From an uncultured archaeon (GTDB lineage Archaea > Thermoproteota > Nitrososphaeria > Nitrososphaerales > CALBXV01): a stretch of 10,718 bases of DNA. Both the position numbers and the translations under genes were made by a program. The DNA lies in NCBI GenBank assembly GCA_937890045.1, contig CALBXV010000652.1, positions 1 to 10,718 of the forward strand, written 5' to 3'. Shown one piece after another: positions 121-10,718 of this stretch. Under the pieces are notes generated by a model, which did no database searches, was not told the origin of the DNA, and saw only the letters and a list, made by a program, of their open reading frames with translations. Numbering within the stretch: position 1 is the stretch's first letter; the number at the start of each line of letters is the position of its first letter.

Positions 121-393
121 TTATTTCCCACTATGTTTAATTTCTGTTTCCAAAAATCCTTTCAAGACACTTCTTTTATATAATATACTGTAAGCGTTCT
201 CTACTTGTCCTTTTTTAACATACTTTGTTGTTTCAGTTAACATTCTTTGAATGCCACCTTGTAATTGTTTTCTCGTCATCACACCATATCCAGGTATCTG
301 AACTTTAGCATCCAAAGGTGTCTTTACACCTTTCTTAGGTGCTGTAATTTTAGCTTCTTTCATGTTTCGGATTAGTGATTTTAGACTTATCAT
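121..393 (-). CDS. Small basic protein after gp21, with a capsid-targeting-like N-terminus
   Basis: Encodes 90 residues, basic and without cysteine. I chose the ATG at 393 rather than an upstream in-frame start because GAGGAG sits six bases before it (405-400), inside the last codons of gp21; the two genes are separated by one base. The first 13 residues (MISLKSLIRNMKE) could form a short amphipathic helix ending in E before Ala14. That layout recalls the roughly ten-residue capsid-targeting peptides of T4 internal proteins, which gp21 removes after [L/I]-x-E, although here the first position is Met. The rest is Lys-rich with a GYG turn and a C-terminal helical half. I do not recognise the family. 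An internal head or core protein is inferred from position between gp21 and the likely scaffold/capsid genes. Confidence 0.75.
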   Translation of the reverse strand: MISLKSLIRNMKEAKITAPKKGVKTPLDAKVQIPGYGVMTRKQLQGGIQRMLTETTKYVKKGQVENAYSILYKRSVLKGFLETEIKHSGK

Positions 394-394
394 A

Positions 395-1018
395 TTATGC
401 TCCTCGCATAATATCATTAATAACTGATTCTACCTTACAATATTCTCCACACGCTCTTCCAGCTGGAATTTCTATATCACTATTAACACCTTCACTCATT
501 GGATACATAAATGCACCATGTGTAGATGGGTTAGATACAAAATCAAATGCTATTAGTTCAAAATCTGGTTGTACTTCTTGTGACTGTTCTCCAGCTTCAC
601 TTACAGTTTCTACTGAACCCATTCCACGAGAAGAAATACCAAGTTTAATTCCACTTTTAAATAATTCTTTTAATATATTACCCGATGGTGTACTTAATAC
701 TTCAACTTCACCTAATAAATTATCACCTTCCCAATGCATCTCTTTTACATTATGAGATACATTACTAAGATTTACTACAGAACTTTCAGGGTGGTCTAAT
801 TCACCCATTGCTCTACTCTGTTTAATAAATTCTTTATGATATTTTTTAGCTTCACGTACTAAGACTTCACGAGGATAAACTCTGCCATTTTGGTTTTTAG
901 CTTCAGCTCTTTGTAAAACACCACGAACAACCAATTTTCCATTATTTTCTTTCATGGATTCATTAATCTGTTCCTGTTTTATTTCAAATGGTAAATAATC
1001 TACTATAAGTTGTCTCAC
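395..1018 (-). CDS. 21: Prohead core protein protease, T4 gp21-like
   Basis: Serine protease of the T4 prohead (herpesvirus-assemblin-like fold), acting inside the immature head to cut scaffold, capsid and internal proteins and then itself. The 207-residue length matches T4 gp21 (about 212). Visible hallmarks are NGRVYPR at residues 44-50, GELDHP at 72-77 with the catalytic His76, GISSRGMGS at 127-135 with the catalytic Ser (129 or 130, by analogy with the GVSSRG of T4), and a DFELIAFDFVSNPS strand at 152-165 typical of the family. The start is a GTG, two bases after the TAG of the 66-residue gene, with GGAG six bases upstream; the overlapping ATG one frame over is followed at once by TGA. 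I-N-E|S at residues 18-21 could be a self-processing site. It overlaps the SD of the following small gene, so the cluster is probably translated together. Confidence 0.95.
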   Translation of the reverse strand: MRQLIVDYLPFEIKQEQINESMKENNGKLVVRGVLQRAEAKNQNGRVYPREVLVREAKKYHKEFIKQSRAMGELDHPESSVVNLSNVSHNVKEMHWEGDNLLGEVEVLSTPSGNILKELFKSGIKLGISSRGMGSVETVSEAGEQSQEVQPDFELIAFDFVSNPSTHGAFMYPMSEGVNSDIEIPAGRACGEYCKVESVINDIMRGA

Positions 1019-1228: not shown

Positions 1229-1864
1229 TTAGTAAAGTTGACCGACTTTATTAGCTAATTTAACTAACCTTTCACTAATTTTTTTCATAGCCGTGTGAGT
1301 TCGTTTCCAATAGGATGTAGAATCTACTCCTATTTCATTCTTCAGTCTCACATTCATTTTAACAAGTTTATCTAACTCAGTTAACTTATCTCGAACCTCT
1401 CTCATTGAGTAACCAATTTTTTGTTTTGCTGATAGAGATTCATCGTTTTTATAATCGTGGTATTTACCTTCTGTTACATTTTCAAGTTTCTTATCAACTT
1501 GTTTTGCTTTAGAAACACCAACTCTATTTACACTTATAATACCTTTACGACCCTTTTTAAGTGCTTTAGCAACTTTCATAACTGCCTCACCTTTACCACC
1601 AGCGTCAATTATCACACTACCTATTTCAGTTTTTACATGAAACTTAGCTTCACTTACTTTTGAAAACCCAAATACATCAGGTTTTTTATGGCCTTCTTCG
1701 TGTCCAGCTTTTTTAATTTTTTTAGAATTTTTCTTACGAAATGCTGCTGGAGTTTTAGGTGGACCAGCACCCCCATCTATATTACCAGTTACGGATGCTT
1801 CTTCTAATTCCTGTTTAATAAGTTCTCTAATATATTTACGTAATACTTCAACTTTTATGGACAT
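1229..1864 (-). CDS. Basic head-core or internal protein, gp21-processed by inference
   Basis: Encodes 211 residues and is strongly Lys-rich. AAGGAGA precedes the ATG, and the start overlaps the end of the 289-residue gene by 17 bases. Residues 1-22 form a charged helix ending in L20-E21-E22 before Ala23, a strict match to the T4 prohead protease pattern, so the N-terminus looks like a removable capsid-targeting or core peptide. A Gly/Pro-rich segment follows (GGAGPPKTPAAF, 31-42), then a very basic stretch (44-61). A short internal repeat reads KVSEAKFH (69-76) and NVTEGKYH (129-136), 60 residues apart. The C-terminal third (145-211) is helical with heptad-like leucines. I do not recognise the family. 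Position between portal and protease and the basic composition suggest a prohead core or DNA-associated internal protein. Confidence 0.8.
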   Translation of the reverse strand: MSIKVEVLRKYIRELIKQELEEASVTGNIDGGAGPPKTPAAFRKKNSKKIKKAGHEEGHKKPDVFGFSKVSEAKFHVKTEIGSVIIDAGGKGEAVMKVAKALKKGRKGIISVNRVGVSKAKQVDKKLENVTEGKYHDYKNDESLSAKQKIGYSMREVRDKLTELDKLVKMNVRLKNEIGVDSTSYWKRTHTAMKKISERLVKLANKVGQLY

Positions 1865-2777: not shown

Positions 2778-4628
2778 TCATTCATTTGAAACACTTTCGC
2801 TTAAAGAACTTATCTCACTATTATACTCTTCTTCTAGTTCTTGTGCCTCTGTTATAATTTTATTATCATATTTATTAAATTTCATCGTTTTTTTCAATTT
2901 ATCAAAGTGAGCTAAAGCTAAATGTTTACCAAATCTTCGTGAACTGCTACCACCCTTTTTCTTATCGTGAGCTCCAAGTGGGTCTCTACCTCTTGCACTA
3001 CCATCTTTACTATATTTAGGGCCTTCTTTTGGTCTACCTGCACCATCCCAACCGCCGGGAGGTGAACCTCCATTAGGTCCCAAATCATCTAATTCGTGAC
3101 TTGTTCTACCCATTGCCATATCTGATGGTGTTCCAGTTGCTTCTCCGCTTTTTGCTGGGTCATTTCCTTCATTTTCAATCTGTGACCTTCTGAATTTTTG
3201 TTTGTAATCAAATGCTATCTCTTTATCAAGTTTTTGTATTTCTTCATCAGTAAATCCAAATATATTTTTATAAATCCATTCTGAAGAAACTAAACCGTCT
3301 TGTAACATAGAACTTGCAAGTGAAGTTTTATTATTCCATAATTCTACTTTTTCTTCTTCATATATTGTAGATGGGTTTGTAAGACCTAATTCAAAGTTAA
3401 CTAAATCTGCATCTTGATAACCTTGTGCATACAAGTGAACAATAGCTATCTTTGTTAATTCTGATATTGTAATTCTTTGAATTCTTTCAATAGTTCTAGC
3501 AAATCTTACATCCTCTGCTGCAAGTGTTGCCTTACTACCAATTTGTTCTTCAAATCCTAAAAACGCTTTTGGTATTCTTAATGAAGATAAAAGTTTATGT
3601 TTAAGATATTCAATATCTTCAACTGCTTCATAAGTTAAACCTGGTAATGAATCTATTTGTGTTCCACTATCTCCACCACGAACTGGTAAGAAAAAATCTT
3701 CTGTAATATTCTGCATATTATATTTTAAATTATAATCACCTGTATCTTCATCAACTACTGGAGCTTTTTTCATTTTATTAATAACTTTTTGCATATAATT
3801 ATCAACTTCAGTAGGTGGTATGTTTCCAATATCTAATTTGAAAATTCTCTTTTCAGGAGCTCTCATGATTCTATGTATTAACATAGCATCTTCCATAAGG
3901 GTTAATTGTTTCCAAATCTTACGAGCACCTTCAACTTGAGATTTACCGTATGGGAGATAATTAGAATCAGATAGTAATCTAAAATGAGCTACTTCATAAT
4001 TTTCTAATTCTTCTTTTGTAACAGAATCTTCTTGTTTATATCTATGTTGATTTGTAACTGACTCTATTAAGAATTTAACATATTCTGGATTGTCGGGGTC
4101 TAGATCTTCTAATCTTGATACATCATACGCCGATAATGGGACTACATTTGTAATACCATATTTTTCAGAAATATCTAACTTCAAAAAGAAATCACCATAT
4201 TTACACATATTGCGAACCCATGGCCATAAATTAAATTCTATATTTATAATATCATAGAATAAATTATGTAATATTTCTTTTATCTGATGATTATCAGTTT
4301 TAATTTCTAAAACTTCTCCATATTCAGATTTCATTGTGGATTCATCTGCATAAATATCAAGAGCACTTGAAATTATTGCATCACTATCCATTGATTCATA
4401 ATCTTTAAAAAGATTTAATCTCATTGACTTAGTTAATAGTGAATCTGAATATCCACTTAAGCCTGCACCAGTAAATATTTTTTGGTACCTATCAACTAAA
4501 TTGTTTCTTGTTATAGATTGTGTACGACTTGTATCAGCAACTTTTAATTTTTTGCCACCTACGTTTCTTACAATTACATTTGTAGAAAATAATCGTTGTA
4601 ATCTACCAAATAGACTTTTATCAGCCAT
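2778..4628 (-). CDS. 20: Portal vertex protein, T4 gp20-like
   Basis: Forms the dodecameric ring at the special vertex of the head, the initiator of head assembly and the docking point for terminase and neck. The 616 residues exceed T4 gp20 (524). The core is recognisable: LWPWVRNMCKYGDFFLK at 134-150; YGKSQVEGARKIWKQ at 227-241; MEDAMLIHRIMRAPEKR at 245-261, matching the T4 MEDAM-IYRI-RAP segment; the D-I-G-N-I-P strand at 266-271; and FFLPVRGGDSGTQIDSLPG at 312-330. The C-terminal part is unusual: residues 490-565 are Gly/Pro/Ser/Lys-rich and probably disordered, followed by an acidic tail (595-616) after I592-T593-E594|A595, a match to the gp21 pattern. The SD AAAGAGGT precedes the ATG and overlaps the terminase stop; the gap between them is 11 bases. 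Confidence 0.96.
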   Translation of the reverse strand: MADKSLFGRLQRLFSTNVIVRNVGGKKLKVADTSRTQSITRNNLVDRYQKIFTGAGLSGYSDSLLTKSMRLNLFKDYESMDSDAIISSALDIYADESTMKSEYGEVLEIKTDNHQIKEILHNLFYDIINIEFNLWPWVRNMCKYGDFFLKLDISEKYGITNVVPLSAYDVSRLEDLDPDNPEYVKFLIESVTNQHRYKQEDSVTKEELENYEVAHFRLLSDSNYLPYGKSQVEGARKIWKQLTLMEDAMLIHRIMRAPEKRIFKLDIGNIPPTEVDNYMQKVINKMKKAPVVDEDTGDYNLKYNMQNITEDFFLPVRGGDSGTQIDSLPGLTYEAVEDIEYLKHKLLSSLRIPKAFLGFEEQIGSKATLAAEDVRFARTIERIQRITISELTKIAIVHLYAQGYQDADLVNFELGLTNPSTIYEEEKVELWNNKTSLASSMLQDGLVSSEWIYKNIFGFTDEEIQKLDKEIAFDYKQKFRRSQIENEGNDPAKSGEATGTPSDMAMGRTSHELDDLGPNGGSPPGGWDGAGRPKEGPKYSKDGSARGRDPLGAHDKKKGGSSSRRFGKHLALAHFDKLKKTMKFNKYDNKIITEAQELEEEYNSEISSLSESVSNE

Positions 4629-4639
4629 TTTTTACCTCT

Positions 4640-6223
4640 TTACTTAATTAACCATTCTAATGATTCTTTTTTCTGATTTACTTCCATCACCCAAGAATCA
4701 TTCTGGTTATCTGTTGGTGTATACACACCTTGATTTGTTGTAATACTATTCATTGCTTTCTTTTGCAATTCTATACCTTCAGCTCTTAATCGTAAAGCTG
4801 TCTCTCTTATCCACAATCCCATAGCATATGACATTACCAAGTCATCATTATATCCTGACATAGCTTCTGCACGACTTCCGTTATATATAAATACAAACAA
4901 TTCATCAATTAATCTTTGAGAATGAACTGTTACTAATTTTTCTCTAAAAAATTCTTCCAATTTTGCTATTACTAATGGTCTTGTTTTAGATGTCAATGTA
5001 AATCCTGGAATTAATTGTTTTTCCATTCTATTAATTTTATTATTAATATGTCTTTGAGTATCTACTACTTGTAAATCTTTGCTCATATAAAATAAATTAT
5101 CATACTCTCTATCAATACATTGTTGTATAGCAGCCCAACCAATATTATTGTTTTCAACTACAAGTAAAGCATTATTATATTCAATTGATATATTAACTAA
5201 TAAATTACCATAATCTCTTGTAGACATTCTACCTTTATATTCGGCTACTTGTTCTAAACTCTCTACATCTAAAATATGAAATGCTGAATAATCTGTAGCA
5301 TCTCCTCTACTAACATCAGCGCATACTATATAATCTTTTGTATAATTTGGTGGCTCCCATATCCAAACATTACTATCAATACCCCTCTTTTCAATTGGGT
5401 CTTTAACTTGTGTAGTTCTATACTCCTCTAAAATAACACCATCAACTACAGATTGACCAGATGTAATAAAATCACAATCACATTCTTGAGCCGCCATTGA
5501 AGGGCCTAACAATTTATCTTGTTCATCTCTCCAGTCTTGTAGTCTCTCAGGATGTGATGTCCAGTGTAACTTCATAAAATTAAAATCATTTAACCCATCT
5601 TCTGCATCCATCCAAGTTCTGTGAAACCAATTACCAACACCATTCGGTGTAGATAGTGCTATACATTGTCCACCAGTTGATAATGTCTGAGATGCTGCTG
5701 CCCATATTGTATCAATCCTATCAATAAATGCTGCCTCATCAAGTATTAATAATGATAATGCCTCTGAACGACCAGCATCTTCACCACTTGATACTGCTTT
5801 TACTTGTGAACCATTTTTATATCTCAATGATAACTTATTATCTTCAACACAAGGTTGTTTTAACCAGCTCGGTAAATTTGCGTGCATTACACGAACTTTT
5901 GTTACTAAGTTTTTGGCAACTTCTTGTTTCGTAGCAATTACCAAGATGTTTTTATCGTGATGAAATGTCATCATCCATAAAGAGTATCCAGCAGTTAGTG
6001 TTGATATCCCTAATTGTCTTGCTTTCAAAATTATATTAAAGCGATGCTGTACTAAATCACTAACAGTTGATTCTTGAAAATTATATAAATTAAAAGGTAT
6101 CTTACCCTTTATTGGATGTTGTATCACACAATACTTTTTCAAGAAATAAACAGGGTCGGATGCACATTTTACATACTCCTGTTTAATTACATCTTTTAAT
6201 TGTCCTTTTGAGTTTCGGTCCAT
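4640..6223 (-). CDS. 17: Terminase large subunit, T4 gp17-like packaging ATPase/nuclease
   Basis: Motor that cuts concatemeric DNA and pumps it through the portal. The ATPase domain shows the adenine-binding Q motif (YNFQ, 47-50), a Walker A variant KARQLGIST (67-75), Walker B LLILDEAAF (158-166, with D162 and E163) and the coupling motif STPNG (191-195). The C-terminal RNase H-fold nuclease has the three expected acids: D303 in CADVSRGDATDYSAFHILD, E357 in LLVVENNNIG, and D460/D461 in GYNDDLVMSYAM, matching the T4 gp17 layout. At 527 residues it is shorter than T4 gp17 (610). The ATG lies one base after the TAA of the 97-residue gene and has no clear SD, so it is probably translationally coupled. 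The portal gene follows directly; T4 places tail genes 18 and 19 between these two. Confidence 0.97.
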   Translation of the reverse strand: MDRNSKGQLKDVIKQEYVKCASDPVYFLKKYCVIQHPIKGKIPFNLYNFQESTVSDLVQHRFNIILKARQLGISTLTAGYSLWMMTFHHDKNILVIATKQEVAKNLVTKVRVMHANLPSWLKQPCVEDNKLSLRYKNGSQVKAVSSGEDAGRSEALSLLILDEAAFIDRIDTIWAAASQTLSTGGQCIALSTPNGVGNWFHRTWMDAEDGLNDFNFMKLHWTSHPERLQDWRDEQDKLLGPSMAAQECDCDFITSGQSVVDGVILEEYRTTQVKDPIEKRGIDSNVWIWEPPNYTKDYIVCADVSRGDATDYSAFHILDVESLEQVAEYKGRMSTRDYGNLLVNISIEYNNALLVVENNNIGWAAIQQCIDREYDNLFYMSKDLQVVDTQRHINNKINRMEKQLIPGFTLTSKTRPLVIAKLEEFFREKLVTVHSQRLIDELFVFIYNGSRAEAMSGYNDDLVMSYAMGLWIRETALRLRAEGIELQKKAMNSITTNQGVYTPTDNQNDSWVMEVNQKKESLEWLIK

Positions 6224-6224
6224 A

Positions 6225-6518
6225 TTAATATACTACGCTTACAGTACCACTTCCGCTTATTTGTTTTACACCTATTTCATAAAGTGTTTTAGCAGTTAAA
6301 GATGATGCCGCAATAGAATCACCTTCGGTTGGCCAAATAACTGAACTTCCTGCAGTAGTTATAATAAATCCACTTGAACCGGCATCAGAACCAGTAAAAT
6401 GTGTTATACCAGCAGTTGCGGTTTTAATTTTGCCAAACTTTGCATCATCTTTTATAGAAGGTACGCTTCTACTTGACACATCAGTTCTTCCTTTACCACC
6501 ACTTGTTATTGTTGCCAT
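6225..6518 (-). CDS. Small Ser/Gly/Thr-rich protein, possible virion structural protein
   Basis: Encodes 97 residues with no cysteine and no methionine after the start. The composition (Ser, Gly, Thr, Ala, Val, Ile) and alternating pattern suggest a beta-sandwich: an FIITTAGSSVIWP strand pair at 51-63, a TAKTLYEIGV strand at 75-84 and a terminal GSGTVSVVY strand at 89-97. Residues 1-30 look like a flexible arm. The style resembles small decoration or fibre-associated virion proteins, but I recognise no specific family. It has a strong SD (AGGAGA, about six bases before the ATG) and a leader of its own with a small hairpin, unlike most genes here, which hints at high expression as for a structural component. 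Its stop is one base before the terminase start. Confidence 0.75.
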   Translation of the reverse strand: MATITSGGKGRTDVSSRSVPSIKDDAKFGKIKTATAGITHFTGSDAGSSGFIITTAGSSVIWPTEGDSIAASSLTAKTLYEIGVKQISGSGTVSVVY

Positions 6519-6582
6519 TTATTTTCTCCTATTATGTCGATTATTTTCGACTTACTATGTTATTTCCCTATATATAAATATA
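6519..6582 (-). other. Leader region before the 97-residue gene
   Basis: At 64 bases this is the longest gap in the window apart from the edges. Read on the minus strand it has an A/T-rich run (ATATATTTATATATAG), then GGGAAATAAC, then the 5-bp hairpin at 6551-6536, then the SD AGGAGA. It could hold a promoter or an mRNA processing site. The exact string TATAAATA occurs only on the plus strand (6573-6580), pointing away from the genes. Confidence 0.35.
6536..6551 (-). other. Small hairpin upstream of the 97-residue gene
   Basis: GTCGA (6536-6540) and TCGAC (6547-6551) pair around a six-base loop. It lies a few bases 5' of the SD for the 97-residue gene and downstream of the zinc-ribbon gene. 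The stem is short and no U-tract follows, so an intrinsic terminator is unlikely. It may be a 5' mRNA-stabilising or processing element, or chance. Confidence 0.3.
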
Positions 6583-7131
6583 TTACTTTAAAGAATCTTC
6601 TATTTTTTGTAGATGCTCTAAAGCTTTATCGGCCTGTTTTTTAATATCTTCCATATCCATTTGCCACTTTTCTTTATCAACGGAATATCCATCAGGTCTA
6701 ACTTGTTGCCAAAATTCTACAGAATCTTGTTTTTTAAACTCTTCAATACTTTGTTTTTGCTCTCTTACCCAGGCTAATTTGTTTGCAATCACTTTTTTTG
6801 TAGCCCATTCATCATATGTACCGTCAATCCTCAGTTTATTTTCAACTTTTACTTGACAGTCTAAACAATGACTGTATAAATACCACATTCTATCATCTAA
6901 CCGTCTTTTCATTACTTTTTTACATTCAGGACAGAACCAAGGTACTCTTGCTTCTTTAGTTATCTCTAATTTTTCATCTATTCGGTTTCGTTCTTCTTCT
7001 TTTTCTAGTTTTAACTTCTTTTTAAAGTCTAAATCTTCTTGAGCGACAAAAATTCGTTTTTCTGGAGTTTCTCCATGTAAAATAGTTTGTAACGCTTCAT
7101 TTTGTCGTTTATTTTCTCTACTATATGACAT
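6583..7131 (-). CDS. Zinc-ribbon protein upstream of the terminase
   Basis: Encodes 182 residues. The N-terminal 60 residues are highly charged (KKKLKLEKEEERNRIDEKLE) and likely a coiled coil. A four-cysteine zinc ribbon follows: C67-P-E-C70 and C89-L-D-C92, with aromatic and basic residues between (RRLDDRMWYLY). The C-terminal 80 residues are helical and rich in Lys, Gln, Glu and Trp. GAGGT precedes the ATG, 12 bases after the stop of the giant gene. The binding partner cannot be read from sequence; zinc ribbons with basic flanks often bind DNA, RNA or RNA polymerase. T4 has the small terminase gp16 just before gp17, and no other small-terminase candidate is visible here, so this protein or an absent gp16 are the options. 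That assignment is speculative. Confidence 0.8.
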   Translation of the reverse strand: MSYSRENKRQNEALQTILHGETPEKRIFVAQEDLDFKKKLKLEKEEERNRIDEKLEITKEARVPWFCPECKKVMKRRLDDRMWYLYSHCLDCQVKVENKLRIDGTYDEWATKKVIANKLAWVREQKQSIEEFKKQDSVEFWQQVRPDGYSVDKEKWQMDMEDIKKQADKALEHLQKIEDSLK

Positions 7132-7143
7132 ATTACCTCTTAA

Positions 7144-8364
7144 TTAAAAATTTAATAAACCTAATATTTGATTTACTGGCGCAAATGCTCCTGTAAACTT
7201 ATATGTTTTACCGTTATACTTAAATACTATTCCTTCTGATGGTACAATTGCGGATAATCCACCAATTTTATTTAATTTATCTAATTGTAACTTCAAAGTT
7301 TGTATCTTTTTTATATCTCCACCACTTTTTACTGTCTTTATTGCATTAATCACATCTTTTCGTATCTTTTGTACGGCCTTTTGGGGTGAAGCGGCTAAAT
7401 ATCCACCAATATTCTTTAATATTTCAGCTCCTACATCAAAAAACAACACTTCAAATGGTTTCATATTCTGTTTTACCCAATTTTGGTGGTCATTCTTATC
7501 AAATGATAATACCCAATCAAGAAATTTCTTATTATCTATATCTTTCTTTATCATTGGTATCTTATATGACTTATCAAAGAACGCCCATCTCTTAGTTAAG
7601 TTAACTAAAATATGATTTGGTATCTTATATTTCATTTGTTTTGACGCATTAAAAATAAACTCTTCCCAGTATGATTGATGGTATTTAGATAAAGTATCAT
7701 TATCTTTAAGTTTATACTGGTTTTGTAACTTTTTTAATCTATTCAAATATACTTTCTTCTTTTTACTAAAATCTTGTACTTTAGGTACTGATAAAAATTG
7801 TGGTTTACCAATTGTATAATGTTTTTGTACACTTTGATTAACTTGTTTAATCATACCAGCTAACATACGAGCTGAATCTTTAGGTTGTCCTATTGCTGTA
7901 CCACTTTCATCATATTCTAATGTTCCGTGAAATACTATTTGTGCTTTATCATAATCTATTACATTAGCAGACTTTGGATACATAACTTCTAAGTTCATCC
8001 AGTTTTTACCATTACCAAATATTTTTTCTTTTTGTTTATCAGATAAAGAACCTATTGATTTATTCAAATCTTTCATTGCAAATACAAATGCATCTCTAAT
8101 GTCACCTCTACCTGAAAACTTAGAAGCAACACCCTTTATATCCATCGCTGATGAACCAAAGTTTTTTAATTGACCTTTATTTCGAGCTGTAACTAATTTC
8201 CCATTTACCCAAGAAACCATTAAATTTTGTCCATCAAGTTTCTCTGTAACATTATCTTCACGACTTAATTCACCACCTAATCCTAATATAATTATATTCT
8301 TTAAATCTGAAAATGTAATATTTTTATCATCAAACGGGTGATTCATATGTCCATATGCTCCACC
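7144..8364 (-). other. Ligase-type nucleotidyltransferase (KxDG) domain
   Basis: Residues 769-1174 of the giant protein. TEKLDGQN (808-815) is motif I of the polynucleotide ligase/capping-enzyme superfamily with K810 as the expected adenylated lysine; R829 in TARNKG fits the conserved Arg after it; NLEVMY (892-897) with E894 fits motif III; SEGIVFK (1144-1150) fits motif IV; YKF with K1157 fits motif V. The protein ends 17 residues after K1157, so no C-terminal OB-fold is present. The distance from motif III to IV (about 250 residues) is larger than usual and contains a helical insertion. An RNA or DNA ligase-like adenylyltransferase is the best guess; whether it seals nicks is unknown. Confidence 0.7.
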
Positions 8365-10718
8365 TTCAATAAGTAACTGTATTTCTTCATCTAAATTAAT
8401 TCTTTCAGATAAACTACTAGCGTACTTTTTAGCCGCTTTCGGTCCTTTATTCTTTGCTACCCACCTAACTGCACTTTGACGACTGATTGTTTTCTTTCTT
8501 CCTTTTGGATTTGGATTCTTTACGGTATCTGGTGCAGATGTTTTCTTTTTTGCATCAGCTTTCTTTTTCTTATGAGCTTTATAAGCTCTAATAGCACCAA
8601 ATGTAACACCGGCTGCCATAGTTGCAGCACTACCTAAAATTTTTGTATAAGGTGCTGTTAATCCTGTAGCTGCTCCTACTGCAGTTAATACTAAGAACTT
8701 AGTTCCCATTGTGCCACTAAATAAATCTGCCATTGAAACTTCTCCTGTCGCTGCCGCTGTAGCTGCTGCTGATAAATCTAAATCATATTCTGGGTCTCCA
8801 ATAAATGTCATCTTAGTCCAAGCGTAAGTTATACCTGCTGCGGCCGCTACACCCATTACTCTTTTTAATTTTGGATGTTTCTGTAAGAAATTATCTAATT
8901 TTTTTAATGCTTTTTCTTTCTTTTGTCCAATTTTTGTTGTTGCTAATTTATTTGCTATCTTATTAGGAACATAATTGATAATCTTTTGATATACTTTGAA
9001 ACCTTTTTTAGCATTCTCTAATACCTTATCTACACTAAAGTCATTTAACTTCGCAATAGAAAATGTATTCTTATTCATCATTGTTTTTCTAACTTTATCT
9101 AAAGGTTGTTTTGCTTTTTTGGCCCAATCCTTTAAAAAGTTATTAAACTTAACTCCCTCTTCTAAAGTCATTCTATCTGCTTCAAGTATTAACTGTACTT
9201 CTTTATCTAAATTAATTCTTTCTTTTAAATCTGTATTTTCAGTTTCACCGTCTGCTCCAGGTAATGCGGGTGATTTAGGGTCAACTCCTTTATCTTCTAA
9301 TCCCATCCATTTAATAACTTCATATCCTAAATTTCTTAAAACTTTATCTTCTATGTGTTTTTTATATTTTCCCTGACTTTGATATGATACTGCAGGTACA
9401 ATAGTATACTTTAATGTATAATCATAATCAGGATTTACAGCATGTTTTCCTAAAATATACTGAACTAATTCCCAACCAGTATCTTTATACATAGAGTCAA
9501 TCCATTCTTTAGCATTTCTTTTATAAGTACTAAATCCTTTATGAAAAGTTGCAGGACCATCGTCAACTGGTGAACCAACTGTTATGCTTCCTTCTTTTAT
9601 TATTTTATTCATATCATTATTAATTAAAAAATCATCTAAAGATTCAAATAACTTTTTAAATTTATTATTCATCATAGTATAGATACCTTTATCAAAATAT
9701 CCAAATGCTTTCTTAAATAACTTTTCTCTATTCTTTTCATAATCAGGTGAACCGAGTAGTTGTCTCATAGTAGTTCCACTAACTTCTTTACCACCGACAC
9801 TAACTGAAACATGCGGTGCAGTAAGAATATATCCACGATCTCTATATCCAGTCATCTTATTTTTATTCTTTTTATAATCATCAAAGTATTTACCACCTTT
9901 TAATCTACCCGCGTCTTTCTTTCCAAAAATATAAATTACTGCAGTTGTATCTTCATCAAATTTCTTTAAAGTATTTACAGCCTTATATGGTGATGTTTCC
10001 TTAATAATACGATTTTTAGGAATACCCATCTTAACCATATGACGAACTTTTTCTCTAAAGTTCATAGGGTGTCTTGGTAATGATTTTAAATTAGATGTAA
10101 CTATATAAGCTTCATCTACTTGTTTCTTTAACCACTCATAAGTTTTTTTATGATGTGGACCAAAAGGTTGAAATCTTCCACCATATATTCCTACTACTTT
10201 TGTTATTTCTTTTTGTTCATTAATATTTTCACCAAGTAATCTTAATAGTTGAGTCATTACCATTGGATTATTAGTAAGAAAAATTTGTAATTTTCTAGTA
10301 TTTTTTGCATACATTTTTGGTATTAAATTTTTATCAATTAATTTTTGTAATGCCTTCTTCATCTTTGGTTTATTTACAAATTCTTTTATATCTTTATAAC
10401 CACTCATGCTATTAGTTTTATTTTTCCTTACTAATTCACGACTTGGAGATGGTATTTCAACTTCTTTGATACCACTCTTTTTTAATAATTTTTGTTTCTT
10501 AATCCAATTTTTAGCTATTTTATTCTTCATAGGTTTTCTAATAAATTTACCTATTCCTTTTTTCACTAACATATCAAATTTCTTCTGAGCCTGTTTAGGT
10601 TTTAAAGTAGCGTTATTATCAACTAACATAAAATTAGCGTTTCCAAACATACCCTGAAAAAACGCCATATTTTTTTGAACTTCATTCCAATATTTTTCAA
10701 CAATCTCTGGTGATAATT
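7144..10718 (-). CDS. Giant multidomain protein: cytidylyltransferase-like, membrane-segment and ligase-like modules (5' end outside window)
   Basis: The frame holds 1174 residues from the ATG at 10668 and stays open for 16 more codons to the right edge (LSPEIVEKYWNEVQKN before the Met), with no SD before that ATG, so the gene probably starts beyond the window. Numbering is from that Met. Residues 20-130 are basic and helical. Residues 158-305 are a nucleotidylyltransferase-like domain with GGRFQPFGPHHKK (163-175) and SGTTMRQLL (297-305). Residues 360-482 form a domain I do not recognise. Residues 497-768 hold Ala/Gly-rich hydrophobic segments (605-619, 656-672, 677-695) and a Lys-rich tail. 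Residues 769-1174 carry a KxDG ligase-type nucleotidyltransferase domain. Matches to the T4 prohead-protease pattern fall at 357-360, 494-497 and 766-769, between these modules. It may be a polyprotein of packaged head proteins; this is inference. Confidence 0.9.
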   Translation of the reverse strand, partial: LSPEIVEKYWNEVQKNMAFFQGMFGNANFMLVDNNATLKPKQAQKKFDMLVKKGIGKFIRKPMKNKIAKNWIKKQKLLKKSGIKEVEIPSPSRELVRKNKTNSMSGYKDIKEFVNKPKMKKALQKLIDKNLIPKMYAKNTRKLQIFLTNNPMVMTQLLRLLGENINEQKEITKVVGIYGGRFQPFGPHHKKTYEWLKKQVDEAYIVTSNLKSLPRHPMNFREKVRHMVKMGIPKNRIIKETSPYKAVNTLKKFDEDTTAVIYIFGKKDAGRLKGGKYFDDYKKNKNKMTGYRDRGYILTAPHVSVSVGGKEVSGTTMRQLLGSPDYEKNREKLFKKAFGYFDKGIYTMMNNKFKKLFESLDDFLINNDMNKIIKEGSITVGSPVDDGPATFHKGFSTYKRNAKEWIDSMYKDTGWELVQYILGKHAVNPDYDYTLKYTIVPAVSYQSQGKYKKHIEDKVLRNLGYEVIKWMGLEDKGVDPKSPALPGADGETENTDLKERINLDKEVQLILEADRMTLEEGVKFNNFLKDWAKKAKQPLDKVRKTMMNKNTFSIAKLNDFSVDKVLENAKKGFKVYQKIINYVPNKIANKLATTKIGQKKEKALKKLDNFLQKHPKLKRVMGVAAAAGITYAWTKMTFIGDPEYDLDLSAAATAAATGEVSMADLFSGTMGTKFLVLTAVGAATGLTAPYTKILGSAATMAAGVTFGAIRAYKAHKKKKADAKKKTSAPDTVKNPNPKGRKKTISRQSAVRWVAKNKGPKAAKKYASSLSERINLDEEIQLLIEGGAYGHMNHPFDDKNITFSDLKNIIILGLGGELSREDNVTEKLDGQNLMVSWVNGKLVTARNKGQLKNFGSSAMDIKGVASKFSGRGDIRDAFVFAMKDLNKSIGSLSDKQKEKIFGNGKNWMNLEVMYPKSANVIDYDKAQIVFHGTLEYDESGTAIGQPKDSARMLAGMIKQVNQSVQKHYTIGKPQFLSVPKVQDFSKKKKVYLNRLKKLQNQYKLKDNDTLSKYHQSYWEEFIFNASKQMKYKIPNHILVNLTKRWAFFDKSYKIPMIKKDIDNKKFLDWVLSFDKNDHQNWVKQNMKPFEVLFFDVGAEILKNIGGYLAASPQKAVQKIRKDVINAIKTVKSGGDIKKIQTLKLQLDKLNKIGGLSAIVPSEGIVFKYNGKTYKFTGAFAPVNQILGLLNF
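8362..8373 (-). other. Candidate prohead-protease site LIE|G
   Basis: L766-I767-E768 before Gly769, at the end of linker repeat copy 2 and directly before the ligase-like domain. Cutting here would release that domain as a 406-residue protein starting GGAYGHMNHP. Confidence 0.5.
8365..8406 (-). repeat. Linker repeat copy 2 (ERINLD)
   Basis: Encodes ERINLDEEIQLLIE, just before Gly769, in the same reading frame as copy 1. The two copies bracket the hydrophobic/basic module (residues 497-768) of the giant protein. This pattern fits duplication of a linker or insertion of a module by recombination between linkers. Confidence 0.85.
8581..8862 (-). other. Hydrophobic Ala/Gly-rich segments, possible membrane-inserting module
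   Basis: Residues 603-696 of the giant protein contain three hydrophobic, small-residue-rich stretches: about 605-619 (MGVAAAAGITYAW), 656-672 (TKFLVLTAVGAATGLTA) and 677-695 (ILGSAATMAAGVTFGAIR). A Lys-rich tail (698-727) follows. The segments are moderately hydrophobic and could be membrane helices or buried, glycine-packed helices. In a packaged protein this would suit insertion into the host membrane on ejection; that is inference. Confidence 0.5.
9178..9189 (-). other. Candidate prohead-protease site ILE|A
   Basis: I494-L495-E496 before Ala497, at the end of linker repeat copy 1 and just before the hydrophobic/basic module. Another match, L502-E-E|G, follows eight residues later. Confidence 0.5.
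9181..9222 (-). repeat. Linker repeat copy 1 (ERINLD)
   Basis: This 42-base segment encodes ERINLDKEVQLILE, just before Ala497. It matches the second copy at 8365-8406 at 37 of 42 bases, with the last 18 bases (9205-9222) identical. The copies lie about 816 bases apart in the same frame and orientation, and each ends at a candidate gp21 cleavage site. Confidence 0.85.
9223..9591 (-). other. Middle module of unknown function
   Basis: Residues 360-482 of the giant protein, bounded by candidate gp21 sites. It starts GSITVGSPVDDGPATFHKGF, continues through an aromatic helix (EWIDSMYKDTGWELVQYIL, 388-406) and a beta-like stretch (YTLKYTIVPAVSYQSQG, 417-433), and ends in a Pro/Gly/acidic linker (459-480). 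It looks like a compact alpha/beta domain of about 100 residues. I do not recognise it. Confidence 0.5.
9589..9600 (-). other. Candidate prohead-protease site IKE|G
   Basis: I357-K358-E359 before Gly360 of the giant protein matches the T4 gp21 pattern [L/I]-x-E|[A/G/S]. It lies in a helical linker after the cytidylyltransferase-like domain; a second, weaker candidate (L340-F-E|S) lies just before it. Confidence 0.45.
9754..10191 (-). other. Cytidylyltransferase-like (HxGH superfamily) domain
   Basis: Residues 160-305 of the giant protein. GGRFQPFGPHHKK matches the N-terminal nucleotide-binding motif of the NMN adenylyltransferase/cytidylyltransferase superfamily, except that the usual H-x-G-H is G170-P-H-H173: the first His and the Gly differ and the last His is kept. 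YIFGKKDAGR (246-255) and VSGTTMRQLL (296-305) fit the later substrate-binding and ISxTxxR-type motifs. Known members transfer AMP or CMP to a phosphorylated substrate; the substrate here is unknown. Confidence 0.75.

What the first reader, a model, noticed from the sequence alone, without database searches (positions are those of the whole stretch)
7144..10718. A giant gene that looks like a polyprotein of packaged enzymes, cut by the phage's own prohead protease
At least four distinct modules are fused in one frame. Matches to the T4 gp21 pattern ([L/I]-x-E before A/G) occur at residues 357-360, 494-497 and 766-769, each at a boundary between recognisable modules; further matches lie at 340-343 and 502-505. 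The protease gene is in the same operon. T4 gp21 is known to process internal head proteins that are then injected with the DNA. If the same happens here, the phage would deliver a cytidylyltransferase-like enzyme, a membrane-active basic protein and a ligase-like enzyme into the cell with its genome. The pattern is short and a few chance matches are expected in a protein this long; the placement at boundaries, not the count, is the argument.
Basis: partly seen in the sequence, partly recalled or inferred. Interest (0 to 1): 0.85.

Follow-up and report, generated by a model that had tools for sequence, protein, structure and literature searches.

The report
Phage enzyme polyprotein with protease linkers
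A large gene in marine relatives of phage T4 seems to string several exchangeable enzymes together, with likely cutting sites for the phage's own head-building protease between them, so that one protein could carry a set of separate tools into the virus particle.

Summary
The finding largely holds, with corrections. The ORF (7144-10668, minus strand) is cut off by the window edge: a cluster representative differing at two residues has 1422 aa, with an N-terminal leader and a P-loop kinase upstream. It belongs to an abundant family of mosaic proteins of marine T4-like phages (kinase, nucleotidyltransferase, 'DDGP', hydrophobic, RNA-ligase-like and other modules; 58 module orders in 88 proteins). 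Module onsets are preceded by hydrophobic-x-Glu although the upstream sequence varies: P1 is Glu in 147 of 166 distinct junctions (background 5%). Where modules are separate genes, a leader ending in the same x-x-E replaces the linker. At the ligase border 25 of 74 contexts have, instead of Glu, an in-frame ATG, all 25 behind AAGGAG: an internal start that would give the same Gly-Gly N-terminus. A gp21-type protease lies downstream in 38 of 41 loci; one (L049) lacks it at the usual place. Others found a cytidylyltransferase in cyanophage virions, and its gene has a T4-like leader. Cutting and delivery are inferred. Best reading: a T4-style polyvalent polyprotein cut by the prohead protease.

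The parts
7144..10718 (-). polyprotein gene, 5' part outside the window; the ATG at 10668 is internal
   Evidence: open frame to the window edge; P0001 (1422 aa) covers it with 2 differences in 1190 positions and extends further upstream
10453..10718 (-). C-terminal part of the P-loop kinase module (AAA_33 / Zeta_toxin like); inner limit approximate
   Evidence: PF13671 1.4e-06 and PF06414 1.9e-06 on P0001; module border by homology
10228..10452 (-). variable insert (PSPSR / NKPKMKKAL segment) ending LLGE
   Evidence: present or absent among homologues; the LLGE Glu itself is kept in 9/36 rows only
9643..10227 (-). NMN-adenylyltransferase/cytidylyltransferase-like module
   Evidence: CTP_transf_like E 0.0017, below Pfam's cut-off here, above it in P0025, P0036 and P0106; top six PDB Foldseek matches are nicotinate/NMN adenylyltransferases, E 5e-3 to 1e-2
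9589..9600 (-). candidate cut IKE|G, residues 357-360
   Evidence: P1 Glu 36/36 rows
9181..9591 (-). 'DDGP' module of unknown fold
   Evidence: low pLDDT in the model
9178..9189 (-). candidate cut ILE|A, residues 494-497
   Evidence: P1 Glu 22/25, A/G at P1' 1/25
9154..9165 (-). candidate cut LEE|G, residues 502-505
   Evidence: hydrophobic-x-E with A/G 24/24
8404..9180 (-). basic module with hydrophobic segments
   Evidence: sequence; present in part of the family only
8401..8412 (-). candidate cut LSE|R, residues 753-756
   Evidence: P1 Glu 34/34; lies in low-pLDDT segment 754-776
8362..8373 (-). candidate cut LIE|G, residues 766-769
   Evidence: P1 Glu 28/39, Met in 8; E 48, M 25, C 1 of 74 distinct DNA contexts in fetched loci
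7144..8364 (-). RNA-ligase-like module
395..1018 (-). prohead protease gp21 (Peptidase_S77)
   Evidence: PF03420 1.7e-28, phrog_207 3.2e-54
4640..6223 (-). terminase large subunit gp17
   Evidence: PF03237 9.1e-10
2778..4628 (-). portal gp20
   Evidence: PF07230 4.6e-77
1229..1864 (-). head-operon protein with leader-like start MSIKVEVLRKYIRELIKQELEE|A; possible core protein
   Evidence: position and sequence; no family match; inference

Best explanation
The gene encodes a polyprotein of exchangeable, mostly enzyme-like modules. One N-terminal leader, comparable to the capsid targeting sequence of T4 internal proteins, would bring the whole chain into the prohead core. The phage's own gp21-type protease then cuts after Glu at hydrophobic-x-Glu sites placed at module borders, at some borders as two sites flanking a short spacer, and releases separate kinase, nucleotidyltransferase, DDGP, hydrophobic and RNA-ligase-like proteins that stay in the head and enter the cell with the DNA. 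Modules are gained, lost and swapped at these borders. Shown here: the modules, mosaicism, site conservation at borders, replacement of linkers by leaders in split genes, the internal start sequence at the ligase border, and operon linkage to gp21. Inferred: that gp21 cuts there, packaging, injection, and a role in early counter-defence such as RNA or NAD repair.
For: P1 Glu at 147/166 distinct junctions against 5.0% background, P3 hydrophobic plus P1 Glu at 142/166. Hydrophobic-x-E within 20 residues upstream of internal anchors: kinase 33/33, DDGP 54/54, HYD 12/12, NMNAT 48/49, LIG 61/70, repeated on new loci. Recurrent homology breakpoints lie within 6 residues of [LI]xE at 0.50 (starts, n 367) and 0.63 (ends, n 286) against 0.11 and 0.10 expected. 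Split or first-placed modules carry leaders ending at the same point: kinase MIKLMDLLTE|GINDPGIFK, ligase MKFLKSYEEFLNENLILE|GGSYGH in LR756500. Ligase border: 48 E, 25 M (25/25 with AAGGAG), 1 C; 1 of the 49 non-M contexts has an SD-like stretch; 7 switches forced by well-supported branches. gp21 downstream on the same strand 38/41. T4 gp21 cuts after L/I-x-E and internal-protein leaders are targeting sequences (PMC9026906, passages, section 10). S-SM1 virions contain cytidylyltransferase T4-GC190 (PMC3037559 section 26), whose gene starts MKKFSAFLNE|A.
Against: No cleavage or virion data exist for this family in anything seen. One of the 41 loci, L049, has five other small ORFs where gp21 is expected, and no gp21 match on its 25-kb contig (a fragment, so not proof of absence). 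A leader regex does not separate head proteins from the rest of a 216-kb relative (10/230 genes against 5% control; with hydrophobic positions 4 and 7, 17/230). Some anchors lack an adjacent site: PSPS 12/23, internal GDT 3/6 within 20 residues, APAG 1/2 in new loci, IWGI P1 Glu 1/5. M-type ligases can be made outside the head. Profile comparison did not link the window's NTase or ligase to the cyanophage versions (hhalign probability 0.8% and 0.15%). Hydrophobic-x-E also occurs inside modules (22 loose matches in P0001 in all, for example 434, 454, 472 and 487 in the NTase). Junction counts are not phylogenetically independent. S-CREM2 authors warn that virion-associated enzymes may be contaminants (PMC10665884 section 19).
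Confidence: 0.74

Rival explanations
1. An uncut multi-enzyme fusion: the modules work as one chain and the hydrophobic-x-Glu residues are ordinary features of amphipathic, charged linkers.
For: No proteolysis data; linkers between domains are commonly rich in Glu and Leu (general knowledge); site 342 lies in a predicted helix.
Against: Glu is fixed at one exact position before the module while most neighbouring positions vary (kinase 35/35, GDT 30/30). The ligase border swaps Glu for an SD plus ATG that would yield the same Gly-Gly N-terminus. Modules also exist as separate genes.
Confidence: 0.12
2. Cut by gp21 or another protease, but the products work in the infected cell late in infection or in assembly and are not delivered.
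For: The M-type ligase start would make a ligase without any leader.
Against: Leader at the N-terminus of complete members, head-operon position, and cytidylyltransferases in cyanophage virions. 24 of 26 M-type contexts keep a hydrophobic-x-Glu within 60 residues upstream.
Confidence: 0.1
3. The chain is a head core or scaffold protein, chopped up and lost at maturation as T4 gp22, gp67 and gp68 are; enzyme-like folds are relics.
For: Head-operon location; multiple sites; basic and hydrophobic segments.
Against: Ligase motifs are invariant in 21 sequences from the window to huge phages; P0025 carries CCA-adding-enzyme and HD domains above Pfam's cut-offs.
Confidence: 0.03
4. The border motif is a DNA-level recombination site, kept for exchange and not for cleavage.
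For: Borders are the exchange points.
Against: Among the 25 E-type contexts printed, the codons differ (GAA or GAG, varied Leu/Ile/Val codons) while the amino-acid pattern is kept.
Confidence: 0.03

Closest known systems
Polyvalent proteins (Iyer et al. 2017, PMC5512222; passages read)
   Same: Large multi-enzyme proteins of phages, near late genes, predicted to be packaged and injected, with cassette-like variation; the authors compare them with polyproteins.
   Different: The release mechanism in the passages read is an embedded MPTase peptidase domain; Pfam shows no peptidase in P0001, P0025, P0036, P0094, P0118 or P0106. Here the separately encoded prohead protease would cut, at sites repeated at module borders.
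T4 internal head proteins and Alt (PMC9026906; passages and section 10)
   Same: Short N-terminal leader ending L/I-x-E, gp21 protease, and an injected enzyme (Alt) as precedent.
   Different: In T4 each internal protein has its own leader; here several modules share one chain.
Cyanophage and pelagiphage counterparts: T4-GC190, S-CREM2 ORF154, HTVC008M gene cluster
   Same: HTVC008M has kinase (44% identity to the module), NTase-like and ligase-like genes close together; AGE60461, AGE60463 and S-SM1 SSM1_190 begin with leaders ending x-x-E; an NTase was found in virions.
   Different: Separate genes; NTase and ligase not shown to be orthologous to the window's.
SPN3US / phiKZ head and ejection proteins (PMC5694885; passages)
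   Same: A gp21-related prohead protease cuts several head proteins (eight of about 50 in SPN3US) after x-x-E.
   Different: Motif A-x-E in SPN3US; the word 'polyprotein' does not occur in the text.

Membership tests
T4-type prohead protease gp21 (Peptidase_S77) | sequence match to the family, in the head operon | tested here: met
   PF03420 E 1.7e-28; downstream of the polyprotein in 38/41 loci
gp21 substrate | L/I-x-E at the cut | tested here: met
   hydrophobic-x-E at 142/166 junctions; cutting itself not shown
gp21 substrate | observed cleavage | not testable with these tools
   needs virion MS or co-expression
T4 internal protein with capsid targeting sequence | N-terminal leader with hydrophobic residues 4 and 7 and hydrophobic-x-E within about 25 residues (positions 4 and 7 from PMC9026906 section 10) | tested here: inconclusive
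   35 of 60 distinct N-termini, some from truncated proteins; genome background 17/230. The window lacks the N-terminus.
T4 internal protein | present in the head and injected | not testable with these tools
   precedent only
Polyvalent proteins | several unrelated catalytic domains in one chain | tested here: met
   by sequence and fold likeness only
Polyvalent proteins | near late/virion genes | tested here: met
   TerL, portal and gp21 downstream
Polyvalent proteins | embedded MPTase (frequent, not universal) | tested here: not met
   no peptidase domain by Pfam in the six members scanned
RNA ligase superfamily (LIG module) | motif I KxDG, motif III E, motif IV EG, motif V K (motif names recalled) | tested here: met
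   invariant in 21 sequences
RNA ligase superfamily (LIG module) | ligase fold | tested here: inconclusive
NMN/nicotinate adenylyltransferase | GxFxPxHxGH and ISxTxxR motifs (recalled) | tested here: inconclusive
   GRFQPFGPHH, with the HxGH part altered, and SGTxxR; top six Foldseek matches are NaMN/NMN adenylyltransferases, none at E <= 0.001

The most novel reading that the evidence does not exclude
'One ticket, many passengers': a single targeting leader loads a recombining string of repair enzymes (kinase, NMNAT-like, RNA-ligase-like, in some relatives a CCA-adding-like enzyme) into the head; gp21 turns it into separate proteins that act before any phage gene is expressed. At the ligase border the cut site has been exchanged repeatedly for a ribosome start, so the same Gly-Gly ligase can be made packaged or cytoplasmic.
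Probability: 0.42. Interest if true: 0.92.

Novelty: new variant of a known kind. Interest (0 to 1): 0.82.

Why it matters
Polyproteins cut into several enzymes are a hallmark of eukaryotic RNA viruses; for phages the solutions that I saw described are a built-in peptidase or one leader per protein. The borders also give a rule for finding unknown injected proteins, and the alternation of cut site and start codon is a natural experiment on why the modules must be separate.

Tried and rejected

Papers: PMC9026906 passages and section 10; PMC5694885, PMC5512222, PMC7824862, PMC9503650 and PMC6102473 passages; PMC3037559 passages and section 26; PMC10665884 passages and section 19; all others listings only. 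No description of such a prohead-protease polyprotein came up in the ten searches of open-licence PMC papers (some asked other things); that is no proof of absence elsewhere.

Full report
What is there. The window is a head-gene region of a T4-like phage, all on the minus strand: the large ORF, two small genes, terminase (PF03237, 9.1e-10), portal (PF07230, 4.6e-77), further small genes and a Peptidase_S77 prohead protease (1.7e-28). The closest named terminases are those of Microcystis phage Mel-JY01 (56%) and Flavobacterium phage immuto (54%). The ORF is open to the window edge. A protein search gave 1902 relatives among 7981 scored candidates (best 120 listed). P0001, which differs from the window protein at 2 of 1190 positions, has 1422 residues, so the window protein lacks an N-terminal leader (MNKLAEWLVKPYLKE) and most of a P-loop kinase.

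The sites. Strict [LI]xE[AG] occurs four times in the window protein (0.95 expected, P 0.0145), at 357-360, 494-497, 502-505 and 766-769, and five times in P0001, the fifth directly before the kinase. A further site LSE|R at 755 is kept 34/34, so the last border has two sites around a 13-residue spacer. LGE|N at 147 is kept 9/36 only. The conserved motif is hydrophobic-x-Glu; the published T4 gp21 specificity is L/I-x-E (PMC9026906, passages).

Placement is not chance. From P0001-P0120 and ORFs of loci L001-L083, 212 family members were found; 166 begin with a start and were counted as complete (some database entries may be truncated), 94 after thinning. Ends of local homology that recur (clusters of eight or more) lie within six residues of [LI]xE in 50% (starts, n 367) and 63% (ends, n 286), against 11% and 10% for random positions; with no minimum the figures are 28% and 32%. 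With module anchors, hydrophobic-x-E lies within 20 residues upstream in 33/33 internal kinase contexts, 48/49 NMNAT, 54/54 DDGP, 12/12 hydrophobic, 61/70 ligase, 10/10 PRV, 6/6 IWGI, 4/4 NKPK, 1/1 APAG, 3/6 GDT and 12/23 PSPS. New contexts from new loci gave kinase 10/10, NMNAT 14/15, DDGP 11/11, PRV 4/4, GDT 7/7, IWGI 1/1, APAG 1/2 and ligase 23/33. Where the exact cut can be named, P1 is Glu in 147/166 distinct junctions: kinase 35/35, PRV 19/20, APAG 11/11, GDT 30/30, ligase 51/65, IWGI 1/5; background Glu is 5.0%. The family is mosaic: 58 anchor orders among 88 proteins of at least 600 residues (some are truncated).

Split genes. Modules also occur alone or first in a chain, and then a leader ends where the internal linker ends: MIKLMDLLTE|GINDPGIFK (kinase alone), MKTLSEDLIKRFLKE|STINNSAFIDDAPPTF (DDGP first), MNKLVEEIIKPILE|ANPKIKKVVGIYGGRFQP (NMNAT first) and, in the huge phage LR756500, MKFLKSYEEFLNENLILE|GGSYGHLNHPFED (ligase alone). 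Pelagibacter phage HTVC008M has ligase-like, GDT, kinase and NTase-like genes in a row; its kinase is MIPFILKE|GLYDPGIFK, 44% identical to the module. Agrobacterium phage Atu_ph07 has another protein joined to the kinase at VTE|GVNDKHIFK.

Two ways to separate the ligase. Of 74 distinct DNA contexts before GG[AS][YA]GHM in fetched loci, 48 have Glu, 25 Met and one Cys. All 25 Met contexts have AAG GAG, nine bases and ATG; 1 of the 49 others has an SD-like stretch there. Of 41 distinct SD-preceded in-frame ATGs in 150 family ORFs, 31 are this one. On a tree of 67 ligase rows (66 labelled) the fewest changes of state are ten, and starred branches alone force seven. In 24 of 26 Met contexts a hydrophobic-x-Glu lies within 60 residues upstream. 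Both forms would give a ligase starting Gly-Gly after Met removal (inference). This is hard to explain unless separation of the module matters; it also means that the ligase can be made in the cytoplasm in these phages.

Protease and packaging. gp21 lies downstream on the same strand in 38 of 41 loci with at least 7 kb of downstream sequence, and the neighbours found are in the same order in all 41 (trivially in L003, where none was found). Of the three without gp21, L002 ends inside the portal gene, L003 is the stand-alone ligase elsewhere in its genome, and L049 is a true exception in place: five small ORFs follow the post-portal gene and no gp21 match was found on its 25-kb contig, which is a fragment. 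In T4, leaders of 10-19 residues target internal proteins and are removed (PMC9026906 section 10). Published mass spectrometry of purified S-SM1 virions detected a putative cytidylyltransferase, T4-GC190, and gp21 (PMC3037559 section 26). In the S-SM1 record T4-GC190 is SSM1_190, which begins MKKFSAFLNE|A. S-CREM2 virions also contain a cytidylyltransferase, with the authors' caution about contamination (PMC10665884 section 19). The window's NTase and ligase could not be tied to the cyanophage versions by profiles, so this is a precedent for the kind of cargo, not for this protein. A leader pattern alone does not mark head proteins. In the 216-kb relative the major capsid protein (PF07068, 1e-77) has LLE|D, LLE|N and IDE|A in its N-terminal region, which would suit the same protease.

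What the modules may do (inference). The NTase module is nearest to nicotinate/NMN adenylyltransferases; its first His motif is altered. The ligase module keeps ligase motifs and resembles RNA ligases weakly in fold. P0025 carries CCA-adding-enzyme and HD domains (Pfam; NCBIfam matches below cut-offs). A set of kinase, ligase and CCA enzyme suggests RNA repair against host nucleases; kinase plus NMNAT would also fit NAD restoration. No step of this was tested.

Verdict. A T4-style polyvalent polyprotein with sites for the head protease at its module borders is the best-supported reading; cutting and delivery await a virion experiment, for which Mel-JY01 (recorded host Microcystis elabens) offers a two-module member.

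Noticed in passing
L099 (KC465899) 3233-7426: HTVC008M carries consecutive genes for DUF6267, GDT-module, kinase and NTase-like proteins, an unfused counterpart of the polyprotein.
   Followed up: partly
L099:3233-4465; L102:27296-28270: DUF6267 (HTVC008M AGE60461; cyanophage T4-GC71 is similar) has KWDGAP, TKS and EGxV motifs and an HLEH start like the ligase module; possibly an unrecognised ligase-like family, but the profile comparison gave no support.
   Followed up: partly
L049:10541-13201: Family locus without gp21 at the usual place; small ORFs with leader-like starts (MIKLKEIIKE, MIKLKHILTE, MAKKIKMKDLMNE) follow instead.
   Followed up: partly
L100:4245-6581: Atu_ph07 gp053 (778 aa): an N-terminal part that looks ART-like by eye (recalled motif, no call) joined to the kinase at VTE|GVNDKHIF.
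   Followed up: no
L084:2112-4835: Flavobacterium phage immuto gp088 (907 aa, annotated NadR) looks like a different multi-module protein with KEVVKE|GSSG and a weak Peptidase_M91 match, E 0.0063, below cut-off.
   Followed up: no
L002:8689-11436: Huge phage LR756508 member with a ParB-like N-terminal module (LDGHHRWKA, by eye) behind a leader MKLGSFSKKLTINLIEE.
   Followed up: no
L018:5271 onwards: A 2463-residue member, the longest in the list.
   Followed up: no
L122: One ligase border has LLLC before GGAAGH, neither Glu nor Met.
   Followed up: no
window 121-417: 98-residue ORF whose internal ATG would give MISLKSLIRNMKE|A, leader-like, directly after gp21; matched in 2 of 84 loci, many of which end before it.
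   Followed up: no
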